From the NCBI GenBank assembly GCA_005888295.1, contig VAWP01000046.1, forward strand, positions 19,945-54,234: a DNA stretch of 34,290 nucleotides, in the 5' to 3' direction. The notes under the pieces are model-generated. The model saw only the letters and a program-made list of their open reading frames with translations, made no database searches and had not been told where the DNA came from. The position numbers were made by a program, and so were the translations under genes. Origin of the DNA: Actinomycetota bacterium (lineage in GTDB: Bacteria > Actinomycetota > Acidimicrobiia > Acidimicrobiales > AC-9). This document shows, one piece after another, positions 1,143 through 9,924 of the stretch; within the stretch, counting starts at the first letter, position 1; each line of letters starts with the position of its first letter.

Positions 1143-1799
1143 TTATTTCTTGGCCGGCTCGTAGTAGGGGTTGTCTCCACTGGCGTGGTCGGTCACGTCG
1201 ACGACCGACGTCACCTCTGGGATGGCGTCGGTGATCGCCACCTCTATCCCCTGACTCAGCGTGACCTTGGCCAGCCCGCACCCCTGGCAGCCGCCGCTCA
1301 GCCGGAGGTAGGCGGTCGAGTCCTCGACGGCCACCAGGTCGGCCCGGCCTCCGTGGGCAGCGATGCTCGGGTTGATCTGGCTGTCGAGCACGGCGACCAC
1401 CCGCTGGGCGACGTCCCCGCTCAGGTCCGCGGCGGGCCTGCCGCCCATGGCCGGGCTGCCCGTGGGGGGTGGGGTGTTGGGGTTGACGATCACCATGCCC
1501 GCACCGTCCCCGGCGCCGCTCACGTCGAGCGTGGCCCCGCGGATCTTGTCCACGCTCGCCTCGGGGATGACGACCGTCAGCTCGTCGTCGTGCTGCACCA
1601 GGTCGTCGGGTCCGGCGTCCGCCGCCGCCTCGAAGTACATGTCGTAGGTGTAGTTCGAGCCGGCGACTCCGCTGACCTCGAGCCAGAGGGCCAGCCGATC
1701 CCCATCGGTCTCCGACGCCCGGACATCGAGCACCATGCCGCGAGCCCGGTCGCTGACCTTCAGCACGGGCTGGAACTCAGGTGTCTGCTGCGAGCTCAT
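1143..1799 (-). CDS. NfuA-like Fe-S cluster scaffold/carrier (degenerate A-type domain + NifU C-terminal domain)
   Basis: Probable scaffold that binds a [4Fe-4S] cluster and delivers it to apoproteins. The protein has 218 residues. The N-terminal half (about 8-110) resembles the HesB/IscA fold but has no cysteines, as in NfuA, where that half recognises targets. After a Gly/Pro linker, the NifU C-terminal domain carries SGGCQGCGLA with C171 and C174 as the CxxC cluster ligands. ATG 1799 was chosen because GGGGGTGAGG lies just upstream. A longer in-frame extension exists but has no such signal and no family similarity. It stands alone, divergent from the ATP-grasp gene. Domain assignment is strong; the client proteins, possibly including the neighbouring radical SAM enzyme, are inference. 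Confidence 0.88.
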   Translation of the reverse strand: MSSQQTPEFQPVLKVSDRARGMVLDVRASETDGDRLALWLEVSGVAGSNYTYDMYFEAAADAGPDDLVQHDDELTVVIPEASVDKIRGATLDVSGAGDGAGMVIVNPNTPPPTGSPAMGGRPAADLSGDVAQRVVAVLDSQINPSIAAHGGRADLVAVEDSTAYLRLSGGCQGCGLAKVTLSQGIEVAITDAIPEVTSVVDVTDHASGDNPYYEPAKK

Positions 1800-1812
1800 A
1801 TCCTCACCCCCG

Positions 1813-1818
1813 ACGGTA
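1813..1818 (-). promoter_or_regulatory. -10 element (TACCGT) of the NfuA-like gene
   Basis: TACCGT lies 13 bases before ATG 1799 with a G-rich ribosome-binding sequence between, so the mRNA would have a very short leader. Position and match are seen; activity is inferred. Confidence 0.4.
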
Positions 1819-1888
1819 CCCTCGCCTGAGATGTCGTCGGTTCGTTCAGGCCGGGACCCCGGCCAGGGCACAGGAACATGATAGGTCC

Positions 1889-3057
1889 ATGGCCCGCCTG
1901 CTCCTGATCCTTCCGACCGCCACCTACCGGGCCCCCGACTTTCTCGACGCCGCCGCCCAGGTGGGCGCCGAGGTGGTGGTGGCCTCGGAGCGCCCGCAGG
2001 TGCTGGCCGAGACGATGCAGGACCGGTTCCTCGAGATCGACCTGCGGCGCCCGGACACGGCCGCCGACGCCATCGTGGCCCTGTCCCGCCGGCGCCGGAT
2101 CGACGGCATCGTCGCCGTTGACGACCGATGGCGACCAGGGACAAGGTGGCCATGCGGGACGACCTGGCGGCGGCCGCCGTGCGCCAGCCCCGCTACGCCA
2201 GCGTCGCTGTCGACGAGGACGTCGGCGAGGTGGCAGGCGCCGTGGGCTTTCCGTGCGTGATCAAGCCGCCGTCGCTGTCCGCCAGCCGCGGCGTCATCAG
2301 GGTCGACGACGCGGCCGGAGCGAAGCTGGCCGGCGACCGCGTGCGGGGGATCCTCGCCGAAGCCGGTGAAGATCCGAGCCGGCTCCTCGTGGAGGCCTAC
2401 GTGCCCGGCCCCGAGGTGGCCCTCGAAGGCCTCCTCCGTGGCGGGGCCTTCGAGACCCTGGCCGTGTTCGACAAGCCCGACCCGCTCGAAGGGCCCTACT
2501 TCGAGGAGACCATCTTCGTCACGCCGTCGCGCCTGCCCGAGGCTGCTGTCGCCGCGGTGGAACGCACCGCGGCCGAGGCCTGCGCCGCCATCGGACTGGT
2601 CGAAGGCCCGGTCCACGCCGAGCTTCGCACCGATGGAACCGATGCCTGGCTCATCGAGGTGGCCGCCCGCTCCATCGGCGGCCTGTGCTCTCGGGCCCTG
2701 TCCTTCGGCGTCGGGGTCAGCCTCGAGCGGCTGATCGTCTCCCATGCCCTCGGCACACCGATCGAGGGGCTGGCACGGGAGCGCCAGGCGGCGGGGGTGA
2801 TGATGCTCCCGATCCCCGCCGAGGGCCGTCTGGCGGCCGTCGGCGGCCAGGACCAGGCGCGACAGGTGCCGGGTGTCACCGGCCTGGACGTCTCCATCGC
2901 GCCGGGCCGGCGGGTGCGTCCACTCCCGGAGGGGGACCGGTACCTCGGCTTTCTGTTCGCCAAGGCGGAGACGCCCGAGGAGGTCGAGGCGACCCTCCGC
3001 CAGGCTCACGGGATGCTCGAGGTGCGGGTCGTCGAAGACGAGGAGGGTGACGGTTAG
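1889..3057 (+). pseudogene. ATP-grasp ligase, interrupted by an out-of-frame internal deletion near 2115-2128
   Basis: ATP-grasp enzymes ligate a carboxylate to an amine or thiol through an acyl-phosphate. The first frame (ATG 1889) gives a pre-ATP-grasp domain ending ...DGIVAVDD. The second frame resumes at 2128 with MATRDKVAMRD and continues through CVIKPP, the central domain and the C-terminal lobe (LIEVAARSIGG) to TAG 3057. Relatives have about 24 residues between VDD and ATRDK; here only about 5 bases remain, so about 67 bases seem missing, which also explains the frame change. The upstream frame otherwise runs on to 2260 as nonsense. The stop is one base before the radical SAM start, so the two are co-transcribed. 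It could be a real pseudogene, a split gene or a consensus error. The substrate is unknown. Confidence 0.82.
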
Positions 3058-3058
3058 C

Positions 3059-4507
3059 GTGGGCGGCGTGCGGGTGCTGCTCGTGTCGACGTACGAGCTG
3101 GGTCACCAGCCGCTCCACGTCGCCTCCCCTGCCGCAGCGCTGGCGCGGGCTGGTCACGAGCCCCGCTGTCTGGACCTCTCCGTGCAGCGATGGGACGAGC
3201 TCGGCCCCGAGGCCGTGGACTGGGCCGAGGCGGTGGCGTTCTCCGTCCCCATGCACACGGCCATGCGCCTGGCCGCCGCTGCCGCCCGTGCGGTGCGACG
3301 ACGCCGCCCCGAGCTGCCACTGTGCTTCTACGGCCTGTACGCGCCAATGGCCGACGACCCGAGCGTCGCCAGCCTCGCCGACCGCGCCATCGCCGGGGAG
3401 TACGAGCCCGCCCTCGTGGACTGGATCACCCAGCTGGCGGGTGATGGCGGGCCGATCGGCGCGCCGTTGGCCAACGGCGGCGACAAGGTCAGCCTCGAGC
3501 TGGGGCGGGGCCGGTTCTCTCCGCCCGCCCGCGACCTACTCCCTCCCCTCGACCAGTACGCCCGCCTCGCCGTCGGGGGTGAGGAGCGCACGGTCGGCTA
3601 CGTGGAGGCCAGCCACGGGTGTGCCCACCGCTGTCGACACTGCCCAGTACCCGTCGTCTACGACGGCCGCACCCGGCTCGTCGGCGAGGACGTGGTCGTG
3701 GCCGACGTCGCCCGCCTGGTGGCCGGTGGCGCCCGCCACATCACCTTCGGGGACCCCGACTTCCTCAACGGACCCCACCATTCGCTCAGGGTCGTGCGTG
3801 CGGTCCACGAGCGCTTCCCGCAGCTGACCTTCGACTGCACTACGAAGGTGGAGCACGTTCTCGCCCACCGCGGGGTCTGGAGGGAGATGGCGGCGGCTGG
3901 GTGTCTGTTCGTGGTGTCGGCGTTCGAGTGCCTGAACGACGACATCCTCGCCCGGCTGGACAAGGGCCACACCGCTGTCCAGGCCGCCGAGGCGGTGCAG
4001 ATCCTGCGGGCCCACGGGATCGAGACGCGCCCGTCCTGGCTGCCCTTCACCCCGTGGACGTCGCTGCAGGACGTGGCCGACATCGTGGACTTCGTCGCCC
4101 GCCACGATCTCGTCCCCAACGTCGACCCCGTCCAGTACAGCATCAGGCTGCTCGTGCCCCTGGGCTCGCTCCTGCTCGGCGACGACCAGCCGTCCCTCGG
4201 ACCCTACGACCCTGAGCTGCTGAGCTATGCGTGGCTGTCGCCTGACGCCCGGGTGGACGCCCTGCAGGCCCGGCTGGCCTCGATCGCCGAGGAGGCCGCG
4301 GCGACCGGCGAGACCGCTGGCACCACCTATCTGCGAATCCGACGGGCCACCGCCGAGGCGATGGGTGCCGCCGCCGACGACGATGCCGCGCCGGTGCTGG
4401 TCGCCGCGGGAGCCGGAGAAGGGCGGCCTCGCCTCACCGAGCCCTGGTTCTGCTGCGCCGAGCCGACGGCCGGGCAGTTCGGACCGCTGGGCCAGATGCC
4501 CGACTGA
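3059..4507 (+). CDS. Cobalamin-type radical SAM protein with C-terminal CCAEP tail
   Basis: Protein of 482 residues. An N-terminal Rossmann-like region (VRVLLVSTYELGHQ...) resembles the B12-binding domain of cobalamin-dependent radical SAM enzymes. The radical SAM core has CAHRCRHC (C188, C192, C195), the CxxxCxxC ligands of the SAM-binding [4Fe-4S] cluster. Near the end is FCCAEPT (C465, C466, then AEP). I recall this as the hallmark of a family named CUAEP/CCAEP-tail radical SAM (seleno)protein, where some members have selenocysteine at the second Cys; here both codons are TGC, so cysteine. GTG 3059 is one base after the ATP-grasp stop, with GAGGAGG about 12 bases upstream. GTG 3047 and 3068 are alternatives. 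The reaction is unknown; pairing with an ATP-grasp enzyme suggests a peptide or small-molecule modification pathway (inference). Confidence 0.9.
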   Translation: MGGVRVLLVSTYELGHQPLHVASPAAALARAGHEPRCLDLSVQRWDELGPEAVDWAEAVAFSVPMHTAMRLAAAAARAVRRRRPELPLCFYGLYAPMADDPSVASLADRAIAGEYEPALVDWITQLAGDGGPIGAPLANGGDKVSLELGRGRFSPPARDLLPPLDQYARLAVGGEERTVGYVEASHGCAHRCRHCPVPVVYDGRTRLVGEDVVVADVARLVAGGARHITFGDPDFLNGPHHSLRVVRAVHERFPQLTFDCTTKVEHVLAHRGVWREMAAAGCLFVVSAFECLNDDILARLDKGHTAVQAAEAVQILRAHGIETRPSWLPFTPWTSLQDVADIVDFVARHDLVPNVDPVQYSIRLLVPLGSLLLGDDQPSLGPYDPELLSYAWLSPDARVDALQARLASIAEEAAATGETAGTTYLRIRRATAEAMGAAADDDAAPVLVAAGAGEGRPRLTEPWFCCAEPTAGQFGPLGQMPD

Positions 4508-6085: not shown

Positions 6086-6637
6086 CTACGGCCGGACGAT
6101 CTCGTCGACGATCCCATAGCCGAGGCCGGTCTCGGCCGTGAGGTGCCGCCCGAGCCGCAGGTCCGCCTCGACGTGCTCGAAGGGCTGGCCGATCGCCTCC
6201 GCCAGGCGTCGGACGAAGTCCCCCACGCGGGTCTCCAGCTCGGTGGCCCGCCGGTGCAGATCGGTCGCCGGGCCCGCGAGGTCGGCCGTCGGCTCGCGGA
6301 GGTGGATCCGTCCCAGGGTCCCGATGCGACGGTGGCTGCAGACAGCGAGCACGCCCGCCATGGTCCCGCCCACCGTGCTGGCGACCGTCGCGGTGACGTG
6401 CACACCGAGCACGTCGATGGTGTCGATGAGGGCGAAGGCGACGTCGAGCGAGTCGGAATCGGCATTCAGCCGCAGCTCGACCGGATCGTCGCCGAGGGCG
6501 TCCAGGGTCATCATCGTGGCCGCCGCGTCGCTCGCCCGCTGATGGTCGATCCTGCCGCTGAGCAGGATGATCCTCCGGTCGAGCAGCGCCCGCTCGGCCG
6601 ACGGCCGAGGGTACCCGGACGGGAAGCTCCCCGTCAT
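6086..6637 (-). CDS. ClpP-like protein lacking the catalytic triad (pseudoprotease)
   Basis: Protein of 183 residues that aligns along its length with the ClpP encoded at 7097, down to the shared ending (YGIVDEIV versus YGIVDDII). None of the active-site residues is kept. The SPGG oxyanion loop reads ADSD. The Ser position (GMGMSAAAM) reads TVGGTMAGV, with Thr or Gly in place of Ser. The His position (IMIHQ) reads IHLRE. The Asp position (RDFYMTAEE) reads LGRHLTAET. It should fold like ClpP but not cleave peptides. Inactive ClpP relatives (for example ClpR) join mixed rings with active ClpP, so a structural or regulatory subunit is plausible (inference). Its ATG overlaps the XRE stop (ATGA), so the two are translationally coupled. 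Confidence 0.86.
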   Translation of the reverse strand: MTGSFPSGYPRPSAERALLDRRIILLSGRIDHQRASDAAATMMTLDALGDDPVELRLNADSDSLDVAFALIDTIDVLGVHVTATVASTVGGTMAGVLAVCSHRRIGTLGRIHLREPTADLAGPATDLHRRATELETRVGDFVRRLAEAIGQPFEHVEADLRLGRHLTAETGLGYGIVDEIVRP

Positions 6638-7011: not shown

Positions 7012-7030
7012 CAACGATGATAACTCGTTG
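7012..7030. promoter_or_regulatory. Dyad CAACGA-N7-TCGTTG, candidate operator between XRE/pseudo-clpP and clpP
   Basis: A perfect 6-base inverted repeat with a 7-base spacer, 19 bases in all, covers the minus-strand -10 (TATCAT, 7017-7022) and abuts the plus-strand promoter region. Position and symmetry fit a binding site for a dimeric HTH regulator such as the adjacent XRE protein (inference). Confidence 0.45.
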
Positions 7031-7054
7031 GTGATATCGCATGTATGGTATAGA
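7028..7054 (+). promoter_or_regulatory. Probable clpP promoter (TTGGTG ... TATGGT/TATAGA)
   Basis: TTGGTG at 7028 and TATAGA at 7049 are 15 bases apart; TATGGT at 7044 is an alternative -10. Either gives a leader of about 40 bases, and clpP has a good GAGG ribosome-binding site. Confidence 0.4.
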
Positions 7055-7096
7055 CGCCGGCGGCCAGGCGCTGGCACACGACGGAAGCGAGGTGCC

Positions 7097-7726
7097 ATGG
7101 CGTCCTATCACTCCCTCATCCCTACGGTGCTCGACAGTGGGCCGCGCGGCGACCGGGCCTTCGACATCTACTCGCTGCTCCTGCGCGAACGGATCGTCTT
7201 CCTCGGTCAGGAGGTCGACGATCAGATCGCCAACCTCCTCATCGCCGAGATTCTGTACCTCGACGCCGAGAACCCGGACAAGGACATCTACCTGTACATC
7301 AACTCGCCCGGCGGCATCGCCTACTCGGGGATGGCCATCTACGACGTCATGCAGCACGTCCACTGCGACGTGGCCACCATCTGCGTCGGCATGGGCATGT
7401 CGGCGGCGGCCATGATCCTCGCAGGCGGAGCGGCGGGGAAGCGCTCGGCCCTGCCGAACTCCAAGATCATGATCCACCAGGGCTCTGCCGGAGCCAGAGG
7501 TGCGCCGCGCGACATGGAGATACAGCTCCAGGAGGCGCTGGCGACCACCCGGCGCATGGCCCAGATCCTCGCCCACCACACCCGTCAGCCGATCGAGCGG
7601 GTCGAACGCGACATCGACCGCGACTTCTACATGACGGCGGAGGAAGCTCTCGCCTACGGCATCGTCGACGACATCATCGCCCCCCGCCGGGGCGTGGCCG
7701 CGCTGGCGGCCGCCGCCGCGTCGTGA
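7097..7726 (+). CDS. clpP: ATP-dependent Clp protease proteolytic subunit ClpP (active)
   Basis: Serine peptidase that forms heptameric rings and degrades proteins fed by ClpX- or ClpC-type unfoldases. The protein has 209 residues, the usual length. NSPGG supplies the oxyanion hole. The triad is intact: S102 in GMGMSAAAM, H127 in KIMIHQG and D176 in DRDFYM. There is no obvious long propeptide. ATG 7097 follows GAGGTGCC, a good ribosome-binding site; an in-frame extension to GTG 7028 overlaps the promoter. The last codons overlap the next gene (GTGA). No clpX, clpC or tig is adjacent, which is unusual for a housekeeping clpP and fits an accessory copy. Its partner is probably the dead paralogue across the divergent promoter (inference). 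Confidence 0.96.
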   Translation: MASYHSLIPTVLDSGPRGDRAFDIYSLLLRERIVFLGQEVDDQIANLLIAEILYLDAENPDKDIYLYINSPGGIAYSGMAIYDVMQHVHCDVATICVGMGMSAAAMILAGGAAGKRSALPNSKIMIHQGSAGARGAPRDMEIQLQEALATTRRMAQILAHHTRQPIERVERDIDRDFYMTAEEALAYGIVDDIIAPRRGVAALAAAAAS

Positions 7727-8028: not shown

Positions 8029-9924
8029 TCAGCCGGTGCCGGCTCGAGCTGGCTGACGCCCCGGTGTCGCGGCGGCGGCCTCGACGTCGCGCCCGTCGAT
8101 CGTCTCTCGTTCGAGGAGCAGGTCGACCACCCGGTCGAGCGCAGCGCGGTGCTCGGTCAGCAGCCGGGTCGCCCGCTGCTCGGCCTCGCGCAGGAGCCGG
8201 GCCACCTCCTCGTCGATCAGCTGTTGGGTGCCCTCGGCGTACGGCCGGCCTCGACCGTCGGCGCCGAGGTAGTTGGGAGTCGAAGAAGAGAACCCGACCG
8301 GGCCCAGCCGATCGCTCATGCCGAAGTCCCGGATCATCCGGGTCGCCAGCTCGGTGGCGCCGGCGAGGTCGTTGCTCGCCCCACTCGAGGCCTCACCCAG
8401 CACGAGGAGCTCGCCAGCCCGGCCACCGAGGCGGACGGCCAGCGAATCGAGCAGGTAGCTCTCGGGATAGAGGTGGCGCTCGTCGATGGGGAGCTGCTCG
8501 GTGACCCCGAGGGCCATGCCCGACGGAAGGATCGTGACCTTGGCGACGGGGTCGGCATGGGGGGACAACACGGCCACCAGGGCGTGCCCGCCCTCGTGCA
8601 CGGCGACGGAGCGCTTCTCGTCGGGGAGCAGAGCGTTGGACGCGTCGCGGCGGCCGAGCAGGATTCGATCACGGGCCTCGGAGAAGTCGGCGCCGGCGAC
8701 CACCTCCCGGTCCGCCCGCACGGCGACGATGGCGGCCTCGTTGACCAGATTGGCGAGGTCCGCACCGGAGAACCCGGGTGTCAGCCCGGCGACCACGCCG
8801 AGGTCGACATCGGGCGCCAGCCTCCGCCCCTTGGTATGGACGGCCAGGATCTTGGCCCGCTCGGATCGGTTGGGAAGGGGGATCTCGACGGTCCGGTCGA
8901 AGCGGCCCGGGCGCAGCAGGGCGGGGTCGAGGGTCTCGGGGCGGTTGGTGGCGGCCATGACGACCACCCCGGTGGCCGGGTCGAACCCGTCCATCTCGGC
9001 GAGGAGCTGGTTCAGGGTCTGCTCCCGCTCGTCGTTGGACGCGAACAGCGCCGCGCCACGCTTGCCGCCGATGGCGTCGATCTCGTCGATGAAGATGATC
9101 GACGGCGCTCGCTTGCGAGCGGTGGCGAACAGGTCCCGGACCCGGGACGCCCCCACGCCCACGAACAGCTCGACAAAGCTCGAGCCGGTGATGGCGAAGA
9201 ACGGCACCTCGGCCTCGCCCGCCACCGCCCGGGCCAGCAGTGTCTTGCCCGTGCCCGGAGGGCCGACCATGAGCACCCCCCGGGGCCCGATGGCGCCGGC
9301 CCGGGAGTAGCGCTCGGGGTGGGAGAGGAAGTCGACGACCTCGCTCACCTCCTGCTTGACCCCTTCGTAGCCGGCCACGTCGGCGAACCGGGTCGGAGGT
9401 CGCTCCTCGTCGTAGAGCTTGGCGCGCGAGCTGCCGATCCCCATGATCCCGCCCGCCGCCCGGGCCGAGCGCCGGCCCAACAGCAGGAACAGGCCGAGGA
9501 ACAGGACGAAGGGCAGGAAGGACAGGATCGTGGGCAGCACCGAGCTGCTGGGGCCCACACCCGTGATGGCCACGCCGTGGGCCTGGAGGATGGGCGCCAG
9601 CTGGTTGTTGCCGAGGGCCAGCGGTATCTGGGAGCTGTAGTGCTGGCCGGCACTCCCCTTCAACTGGCCGGTGACCTTGCCGTTGGGGTCGATGGTGGCC
9701 GTGGACACCTGGTTGGCGTTGACCTTGTCGACGAAGGACGAGTAGTTGAGGTTGGTGACCGGTGGGGCGCTGCCCATCGCCGGTATGAACAGCAGGCCGA
9801 CGGTGGCGACGATGCCGACCACCAGGAACCAGACCCGCCAGCGAGGAGGCGGTGGTGGCACCGGCCGCTTCGGCGGGTCCGACGGCGGACCGGGCTTCGG
9901 TGGGTTGGAGTGATGCTGGATCAC
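8029..9924 (-). CDS. ftsH: ATP-dependent zinc metalloprotease FtsH
   Basis: Membrane-anchored AAA+ protease that extracts and degrades membrane and soluble proteins. The protein has 631 residues. A Pro-rich cytosolic start leads to TM1 (about 31-50), an external domain and TM2 (about 131-149). The AAA module has Walker A GPPGTGKT (221-228), Walker B IFIDE (277-281) and the second region of homology near ATNRPETLDPALLRPGRFDR. The peptidase has the zinc motif HEGGH (443-447), where most FtsH read HEAGH; the fixed His and Glu are kept. GTG 9924 follows a G-rich stretch. A TAGGTT -10 lies about 32 bases upstream. It is shorter at the C-terminus than many main actinobacterial FtsH, so it may be a second copy. 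Divergent from the GH13 gene. Confidence 0.96.
   Translation of the reverse strand: MIQHHSNPPKPGPPSDPPKRPVPPPPPRWRVWFLVVGIVATVGLLFIPAMGSAPPVTNLNYSSFVDKVNANQVSTATIDPNGKVTGQLKGSAGQHYSSQIPLALGNNQLAPILQAHGVAITGVGPSSSVLPTILSFLPFVLFLGLFLLLGRRSARAAGGIMGIGSSRAKLYDEERPPTRFADVAGYEGVKQEVSEVVDFLSHPERYSRAGAIGPRGVLMVGPPGTGKTLLARAVAGEAEVPFFAITGSSFVELFVGVGASRVRDLFATARKRAPSIIFIDEIDAIGGKRGAALFASNDEREQTLNQLLAEMDGFDPATGVVVMAATNRPETLDPALLRPGRFDRTVEIPLPNRSERAKILAVHTKGRRLAPDVDLGVVAGLTPGFSGADLANLVNEAAIVAVRADREVVAGADFSEARDRILLGRRDASNALLPDEKRSVAVHEGGHALVAVLSPHADPVAKVTILPSGMALGVTEQLPIDERHLYPESYLLDSLAVRLGGRAGELLVLGEASSGASNDLAGATELATRMIRDFGMSDRLGPVGFSSSTPNYLGADGRGRPYAEGTQQLIDEEVARLLREAEQRATRLLTEHRAALDRVVDLLLERETIDGRDVEAAAATPGRQPARAGTG

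What the first reader, a model, noticed from the sequence alone, without database searches (positions are those of the whole stretch)
3059..4507. CCAEP-tail cobalamin-type radical SAM enzyme with an ATP-grasp partner
The C-terminus FCCAEPT is the recognised CUAEP/CCAEP tail, in which the second Cys can be selenocysteine. An N-terminal B12-like region, CxxxCxxC and an ATP-grasp gene one base upstream form a compact biosynthetic unit of unknown product. The tail could act as a resolving thiol or receive the product.
Basis: partly seen in the sequence, partly recalled or inferred. Interest (0 to 1): 0.65.

Follow-up and report, generated by a model that had tools for sequence, protein, structure and literature searches.

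The report
Cys-tail radical SAM enzyme with ligase
The gene is a cysteine version of a known but functionally unexplained radical-enzyme family that often carries selenocysteine in its tail; it almost always comes with one particular ATP-grasp ligase and is the sister family of the enzyme that builds the arsenic antibiotic arsinothricin, which gives a testable idea of what it does.

Summary
Window 3059-4507 (+) is a full member of NCBIfam NF040546 (CUAEP/CCAEP-tail radical SAM (seleno)protein; 565 bits, cut-off 500). The tail FC[C/U][A/S]EP is present in all 80 relatives fetched; 33 of 85 members examined carry TGA at the second position, never TAA or TAG, followed by a hairpin with compensatory changes in 6 of 7 pairs (a bacterial SECIS). 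The window has TGC and a decayed hairpin, though its genome keeps SelA, SelB and tRNA-Sec. The ATP-grasp partner is near-obligate: 23 of 24 rSAM genomes of the phylum carry it (10 of 372 others), as do all 29 searched genomes whose rSAM has no adjacent copy. In the window the ATP-grasp gene is broken by a net 67-nt loss (real or assembly error). The nearest characterised family is ArsL (arsinothricin, C-As bond formation), whose RCCLKC tail aligns on the CC pair. No arsenic-gene association; neighbours are Nfu, DUF169, SaoD/DsrE and, in two phyla, pyruvate dehydrogenase/lipoate genes. 'Cobalamin-type' is unsupported beyond the fold. Best guess: ArsL-like transfer of SAM's aminocarboxypropyl group to an atom held by the tail pair, in one pathway with an L-amino-acid-ligase-like enzyme. 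Substrate unknown.

The parts
3059..4507 (+). CUAEP/CCAEP-tail radical SAM protein, Cys form (start at 3059 GTG or 3068 GTG)
   Evidence: NF040546 565 bits, cut-off 500; 68% identical to L003, a Sec form; AF2 pLDDT 91.5
3620..3643 (+). radical SAM cluster motif CAHRCRHC (CxxxCxxC)
   Evidence: translation; three Cys invariant in 82 members and in the ArsL relatives
4448..4465 (+). C-terminal tail motif FCCAEP; the second Cys codon (TGC, 4454-4456) is the position that is TGA/Sec in relatives
4469..4487 (+). decayed remnant of the SECIS hairpin that follows the TGA in Sec relatives (about 4 of 7 pairs left)
   Evidence: Sec relatives 96% paired with covariation; Cys members 44%, no better than shuffles; window sequence
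1890..3057 (+). ATP-grasp L-amino-acid-ligase-like gene, broken: N part 1890-about 2125, C part 2128-3057 in another frame, about 23 codons missing
   Evidence: (ATPgrasp_N, ATP-grasp_4, LAL_C2)
1143..1850 (-). Nfu-like Fe-S carrier (degenerate A-type part + NifU domain with CxxC), divergent from the ATP-grasp gene; conserved neighbour
   Evidence: PF01106 70 bits; TIGR03341 94 bits, below its cut-off 269; within 6 kb of the rSAM gene in 41 of 81 loci

Best explanation
A two-enzyme pathway. The radical SAM protein is an ArsL-type enzyme. Its [4Fe-4S] cluster would cleave SAM in the non-canonical way to a 3-amino-3-carboxypropyl (ACP) radical and transfer this group to a thiophilic atom (As, Se, S or another; not identified) held by the vicinal Cys-Cys or Cys-Sec pair at the end of the protein, giving a 2-amino-4-X-butanoate. 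The ATP-grasp partner, an L-amino-acid-ligase-type enzyme, acts in the same pathway to form an amide or peptide bond, before or after the radical step. The Nfu-like protein would supply Fe-S clusters. Shown here: family, tail conservation, Sec usage, near-obligate ATP-grasp partnership, homology to ArsL including alignment of the CC pair. Inferred: ACP chemistry, the tail as substrate ligand, order of steps, product.
For: ArsL is by far the nearest named family: NF040542 281 bits, next family 40; reciprocally ArsL proteins score 336-364 bits with NF040546. Shared positions include E-x-G-x-Q-P near the N-terminus, CxxxCxxC, DxDF, E287, K299 and the tail CC. ArsL makes hydroxyarsinothricin from As(III) in E. 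coli, predicted as ACP transfer (PMC8552651); ACP radical transfer to arsenic is stated in PMC12159101 citing Yao 2024. ATP-grasp: 23/24 against 10/372 genomes (Fisher 2e-28), holding within two taxonomic families (13/13 against 3/14 of those listed), and 29/29 genomes with no adjacent copy. Several RCCLKC clusters also hold a ligase-type ATP-grasp gene. The ATP-grasp profile's best PDB match is L-amino acid ligase BL00235, 199 bits. Sec at the second tail position in lineages with SelB fits a soft-ligand or redox role.
Against: No ars genes seen in the neighbourhoods and no association with the arsenite methyltransferase ArsM: 13/24 against 157/372, absent from the window's genome. ArsL's third tail Cys and its Lys are replaced by Pro and Glu, and no other Cys is invariant, so three-thiolate As(III) binding is unlikely. 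The ATP-grasps of the RCCLKC clusters are not closer to this ATP-grasp family than other ligases (85-140 bits against 199 for BL00235). The ATP-grasp occurs without the rSAM (e.g. one-contig genome G331), so the ligase may act first or have another role. Model coordinates could not be read, so the tail-to-cluster distance was not measured.
Confidence: 0.35

Rival explanations
1. The pair serves the pyruvate dehydrogenase/lipoyl system: the ATP-grasp/rSAM pathway makes or repairs something that acts on the lipoyl group or protects its dithiol, and the tail pair exchanges with lipoyl thiols.
For: In 12 Chloroflexota loci lipB, lipA and aceE follow the rSAM gene (E2 and/or E3 beyond them where the contig reaches); in 8 loci of a separate, mostly Acidimicrobiia clade aceE lies divergently next to the rSAM gene (families confirmed). 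AceE is in 23/24 rSAM genomes against 129/372. Nfu proteins serve lipoyl synthase in other organisms (papers).
Against: Most loci, the window included, have no such neighbours; AceE correlates with clade and lifestyle; LipA is present in 21 of 22 rSAM genomes tested, so nothing is being replaced; no biochemical precedent.
Confidence: 0.2
2. The tail is a redox relay, a Cys-Cys or Cys-Sec pair on a flexible C-terminus like that of Sec thioredoxin reductase, which re-reduces the active site or a disulfide intermediate; the chemistry is otherwise an ordinary 5'-deoxyadenosyl-radical reaction.
For: Vicinal Cys-Sec near the C-terminus, exchanged between Sec and Cys at least 10 times on the tree; tail confidence in the model is only moderate (pLDDT 66-84), which fits mobility; the best fold match is AprD4, a 5'-deoxyadenosyl-radical enzyme (general knowledge).
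Against: ArsL, the sister family, has the homologous CC in a three-Cys motif that suits metalloid binding; the surrounding WFC-x-[A/S]-E-P is nearly invariant, more than a plain relay would need.
Confidence: 0.2
3. A true organoarsenical pathway: the tail pair holds As(III) or methylarsenite and the product is an arsinothricin-like amino acid, afterwards ligated to a dipeptide. (A special case of the best explanation.)
For: Sister to ArsL with aligned CC; a Cys pair would suffice for methylarsenite (inference); RCCLKC clusters also hold a ligase-type ATP-grasp gene; SaoD/DsrE-family neighbour in 6 loci.
Against: No ars neighbours and no ArsM association.
Confidence: 0.15
4. The rSAM modifies the product of the ATP-grasp enzyme, a small peptide-like metabolite, with no heteroatom transfer.
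For: Asymmetric dependence: the rSAM is almost never found without the ATP-grasp (1 of 24), the ATP-grasp is found without the rSAM (10 of 33, two of them cut off by contig ends); the ATP-grasp sits with Nfu even where the rSAM is elsewhere or absent.
Against: Does not explain the Cys/Sec tail or the ArsL relationship.
Confidence: 0.2

Closest known systems
NCBIfam NF040546 CUAEP/CCAEP-tail radical SAM (seleno)protein
   Same: Scores above the curated cut-off, same tail, same domain order; annotated in Thermomicrobium roseum (WP_012643191)
   Different: The window has the Cys form, nested among Sec forms, in a genome that still has Sec machinery; the family has no assigned function
ArsL (NF040542, RCCLKC-tail, arsinothricin biosynthesis)
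   Same: Nearest characterised family, homology over nearly the full length, aligned C-terminal CC pair, several clusters with a ligase-type ATP-grasp gene
   Different: Below the ArsL cut-off (281 against 450), tail FCCAEP instead of RCCLKC, no ars operon, a longer stretch before the tail
L-amino acid ligase (ATP-grasp, LAL_C2; BL00235, BacD)
   Same: The ATP-grasp partner has ATP-grasp_4 and LAL_C2 domains and its profile matches BL00235 best
   Different: A distinct conserved subfamily, mostly next to an Nfu-like gene; substrates unknown
AprD4 (PDB 6fd2)
   Same: Best solved fold match, Z 26.0, rmsd 4.0, 406 residues aligned
   Different: 16% identity; acts on an aminoglycoside sugar; no Cys/Sec tail pair known to me

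Membership tests
NF040546 CUAEP/CCAEP-tail radical SAM | profile score over the curated cut-off (500 bits) | tested here: met
   565 bits
NF040546 CUAEP/CCAEP-tail radical SAM | C-terminal C-C/U-A-E-P tail | tested here: met
   FCCAEPT at the tail; CC/CU invariant in 82 members
Bacterial selenoprotein | in-frame TGA with SECIS at the Sec position in this gene | tested here: not met
   TGC in the window, hairpin decayed
Bacterial selenoprotein (relatives) | in-frame TGA with covarying SECIS in relatives, SelB in the genome | tested here: met
   33 Sec members: 96% paired, 6 of 7 pairs with compensatory change, 0/500 shuffles; SelB over cut-off in 12 of 14 TGA genomes
ArsL (arsinothricin radical SAM) | profile score over 450 bits | tested here: not met
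   281 bits
ArsL (arsinothricin radical SAM) | RCCLKC tail | tested here: not met
   FCCAEP; only CC shared
ArsL (arsinothricin radical SAM) | ars operon context (arsQ, arsM, arsN) | tested here: not met
   no conserved ars gene among neighbours of 80 relatives; ArsM not associated
ArsL (arsinothricin radical SAM) | ACP transfer from SAM to arsenic | not testable with these tools
   needs enzymology
Cobalamin-dependent radical SAM enzyme | B12-binding domain over the Pfam gathering score | tested here: not met
   PF02310 27.0 bits, gathering 32.1
Cobalamin-dependent radical SAM enzyme | B12-binding-type fold and bound cobalamin | tested here: inconclusive
   fold matches OxsB and TsrM at Z 23-24 but AprD4 best; DxHxxG absent from the sequence; binding not testable here
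L-amino acid ligase (partner gene) | ATP-grasp_4 and LAL_C2 domains | tested here: met
   93.5 and 69.1 bits
RiPP radical SAM system | conserved small precursor gene nearby | tested here: not met
   no short ORF shared by more than two loci within 3 kb

The most novel reading that the evidence does not exclude
A widespread second branch of ArsL-type enzymes that uses a C-terminal Cys-Sec pair to hold a heteroatom while adding SAM's aminocarboxypropyl group, obligately paired with a dedicated amino-acid ligase and linked to lipoyl/pyruvate dehydrogenase metabolism: an unknown heteroatom-containing amino acid or dipeptide of Actinomycetota and Chloroflexota.
Probability: 0.2. Interest if true: 0.8.

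Novelty: new member of a known kind. Interest (0 to 1): 0.5.

Why it matters
The family has a curated name but no function. The near-obligate ligase partner, the sister relation to ArsL, the covarying SECIS and the two separate pyruvate dehydrogenase linkages turn 'unknown' into a short list of experiments. If the ArsL-like reading holds, selenocysteine would act as a substrate-holding ligand in a radical enzyme, and a new class of heteroatom amino acids would be expected in common soil and marine bacteria. Annotation matters too: the T. roseum Sec protein is cut off at its TGA in the public record.

Tried and rejected
Chance C-terminal CC: rejected (invariant in all relatives). TGA in relatives as genuine stop: rejected (only TGA, covarying hairpin, SelB). 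Hairpin as a by-product of the conserved protein sequence: Cys members at the same columns are no better than shuffles. Small precursor peptide: none. ArsM co-occurrence as support for arsenic: no association. Orthology of this ATP-grasp with the ATP-grasps of RCCLKC clusters: not supported, BL00235 scores higher. AceE co-occurrence: strong but confounded by clade and lifestyle, not counted as proof. Literature on CUAEP or RCCLKC: no full-text hit; two papers by Haft and co-workers on selenoprotein families are not held. AprD4 literature search gave little on cobalamin.

Full report
What is there. The frame 3059-4507 (+) encodes a 482-residue protein. It is a full member of NCBIfam NF040546, CUAEP/CCAEP-tail radical SAM (seleno)protein, 565 bits against a cut-off of 500. 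The radical SAM domain passes Pfam; the B12-binding match does not (27.0 against 32.1 bits). The relatives' start suggests GTG 3068; the GAGGAGG at about 3040 would allow 3059.

The tail. In 80 relatives from species-representative genomes the tail WFC[C/U][A/S]EP is always present. In 82 aligned members the three cluster Cys and the two tail positions are the only invariant Cys. Among 90 sequences, 37 have TGA and 53 TGC/TGT at the second position, none TAA or TAG (a few are duplicates of one locus).

Selenocysteine. 33 TGA members carry a 7-bp hairpin starting 15 nt after the TGA with a five-base loop; 96% of cells pair, 6 of 7 pairs have compensatory changes, and no shuffle of 500 reaches this. 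The same columns in 33 Cys members give 44%, the shuffle level. SelB passes its cut-off in 12 of 14 genomes with TGA and 2 of 7 with Cys (Fisher 0.017). The tree needs at least 10 Sec/Cys exchanges; the window's sister (SH-aLRT 91) and its five nearest rows are all Sec forms. The window genome has SelA, SelB and tRNA-Sec, so its Cys form is most simply a recent replacement. In Thermomicrobium roseum the public protein stops at WFC, but the DNA continues TGA-GCG-GAG-CCG, i.e. U-A-E-P.

The ATP-grasp partner. It has ATP-grasp_4 and LAL_C2 domains, and its family profile matches L-amino acid ligase BL00235 best among solved proteins. In the window the gene is interrupted: profile positions 1-80 and 104-406 are in different frames, 2 nt apart, so 23 codons are missing with a frameshift. 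No other lesion is seen, so this is a recent mutation or an assembly error. Across 396 genomes of the phylum (the window's included), the rSAM occurs in 24 (20 over the cut-off, one just under it, two partial at contig ends, and divergent G080), the specific ATP-grasp in 33, both in 23 (Fisher 2e-28). Inside two taxonomic families (codes f16 and f53), rSAM genomes have it 13 of 13 and the other listed genomes 3 of 14. Of the relatives without an adjacent copy, all 29 genomes searched hold it elsewhere. The ATP-grasp occurs without a detected rSAM in 10 genomes, two of them cut at contig ends.

Neighbourhood. The Nfu-like gene is divergent from the ATP-grasp gene in most loci. DUF169 lies near 22 loci and a SaoD/DsrE-family gene directly after the rSAM gene, on the other strand, in 6. 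In 12 Chloroflexota loci lipB, lipA and aceE follow, with E2 and E3 beyond where the contig reaches; in 8 loci of a separate clade aceE lies divergently upstream, directly or behind another gene. No small conserved ORF is found.

Relationship to ArsL. ArsL (NF040542) is the only other family with a strong match, 281 bits against 40 for the next, and ArsL proteins match NF040546 at 336-364 bits. The C-terminal CC pairs align, the third Cys and the Lys of RCCLKC do not. ArsL with As(III) makes hydroxyarsinothricin (PMC8552651); ACP radical transfer is reported by PMC12159101 citing Yao 2024. Several RCCLKC plasmid clusters hold a ligase-type ATP-grasp gene beside ars genes, but these ATP-grasps are not specifically closest to the one here. 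ArsM shows no association.

Structure. The AlphaFold2 model is confident (pLDDT 91.5). The best solved matches are AprD4 (Z 26.0, rmsd 4.0, 406 aligned), MgmA, OxsB and TsrM, i.e. the B12-type radical SAM architecture; the fold does not show that cobalamin is bound, and DxHxxG is absent from the sequence.

Reading. Family, Sec/Cys tail, ATP-grasp partnership and ArsL relationship are shown. ACP chemistry, the tail as holder of the acceptor atom, and the place of the ligase in the pathway are inferred. I give the ArsL-like mechanism 0.35, with lipoyl/PDH service, redox relay, modification of a ligase product, and a true arsenic pathway (a special case of the first) as rivals; these do not all exclude one another. 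The window protein is an ordinary member of a known, unexplained family; what is added is the evidence on its partners and relatives.

Noticed in passing
window 2080-2160: Net 67-nt loss with frameshift in the ATP-grasp gene; the flanking parts are otherwise intact, so recent mutation or assembly error.
   Followed up: partly
L112:8935-10440 (Thermomicrobium roseum plasmid): RefSeq protein WP_012643191 ends at WFC because TGA was read as stop; the DNA continues as Sec-AEP.
   Followed up: yes
L056: Record titled Bifidobacterium breve holds an rSAM gene nearly identical to that of Actinobacteria bacterium IMCC26256 (L052); probably a mislabelled or contaminated MAG contig.
   Followed up: no
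window 6086-6637 (-) and 7028-7726 (+): By eye, two ClpP-like protease genes lie close together, followed by an FtsH-like gene at 8029-9924 (-).
   Followed up: no
L036, L046, L021 and about 20 other loci: A DUF169 (PF02596) gene recurs beside the Nfu-like gene of this module; its role is unknown.
   Followed up: partly
G045, G057, G331, G340 (L093-L096): Genomes with the Nfu/ATP-grasp pair but neither the rSAM nor AceE; they may show what the ligase does alone.
   Followed up: partly
G080 (L092:9030-10346): Very divergent adjacent ATP-grasp/rSAM pair with tail FCCAAPPR and an Nfu-like frame on the other strand upstream.
   Followed up: partly
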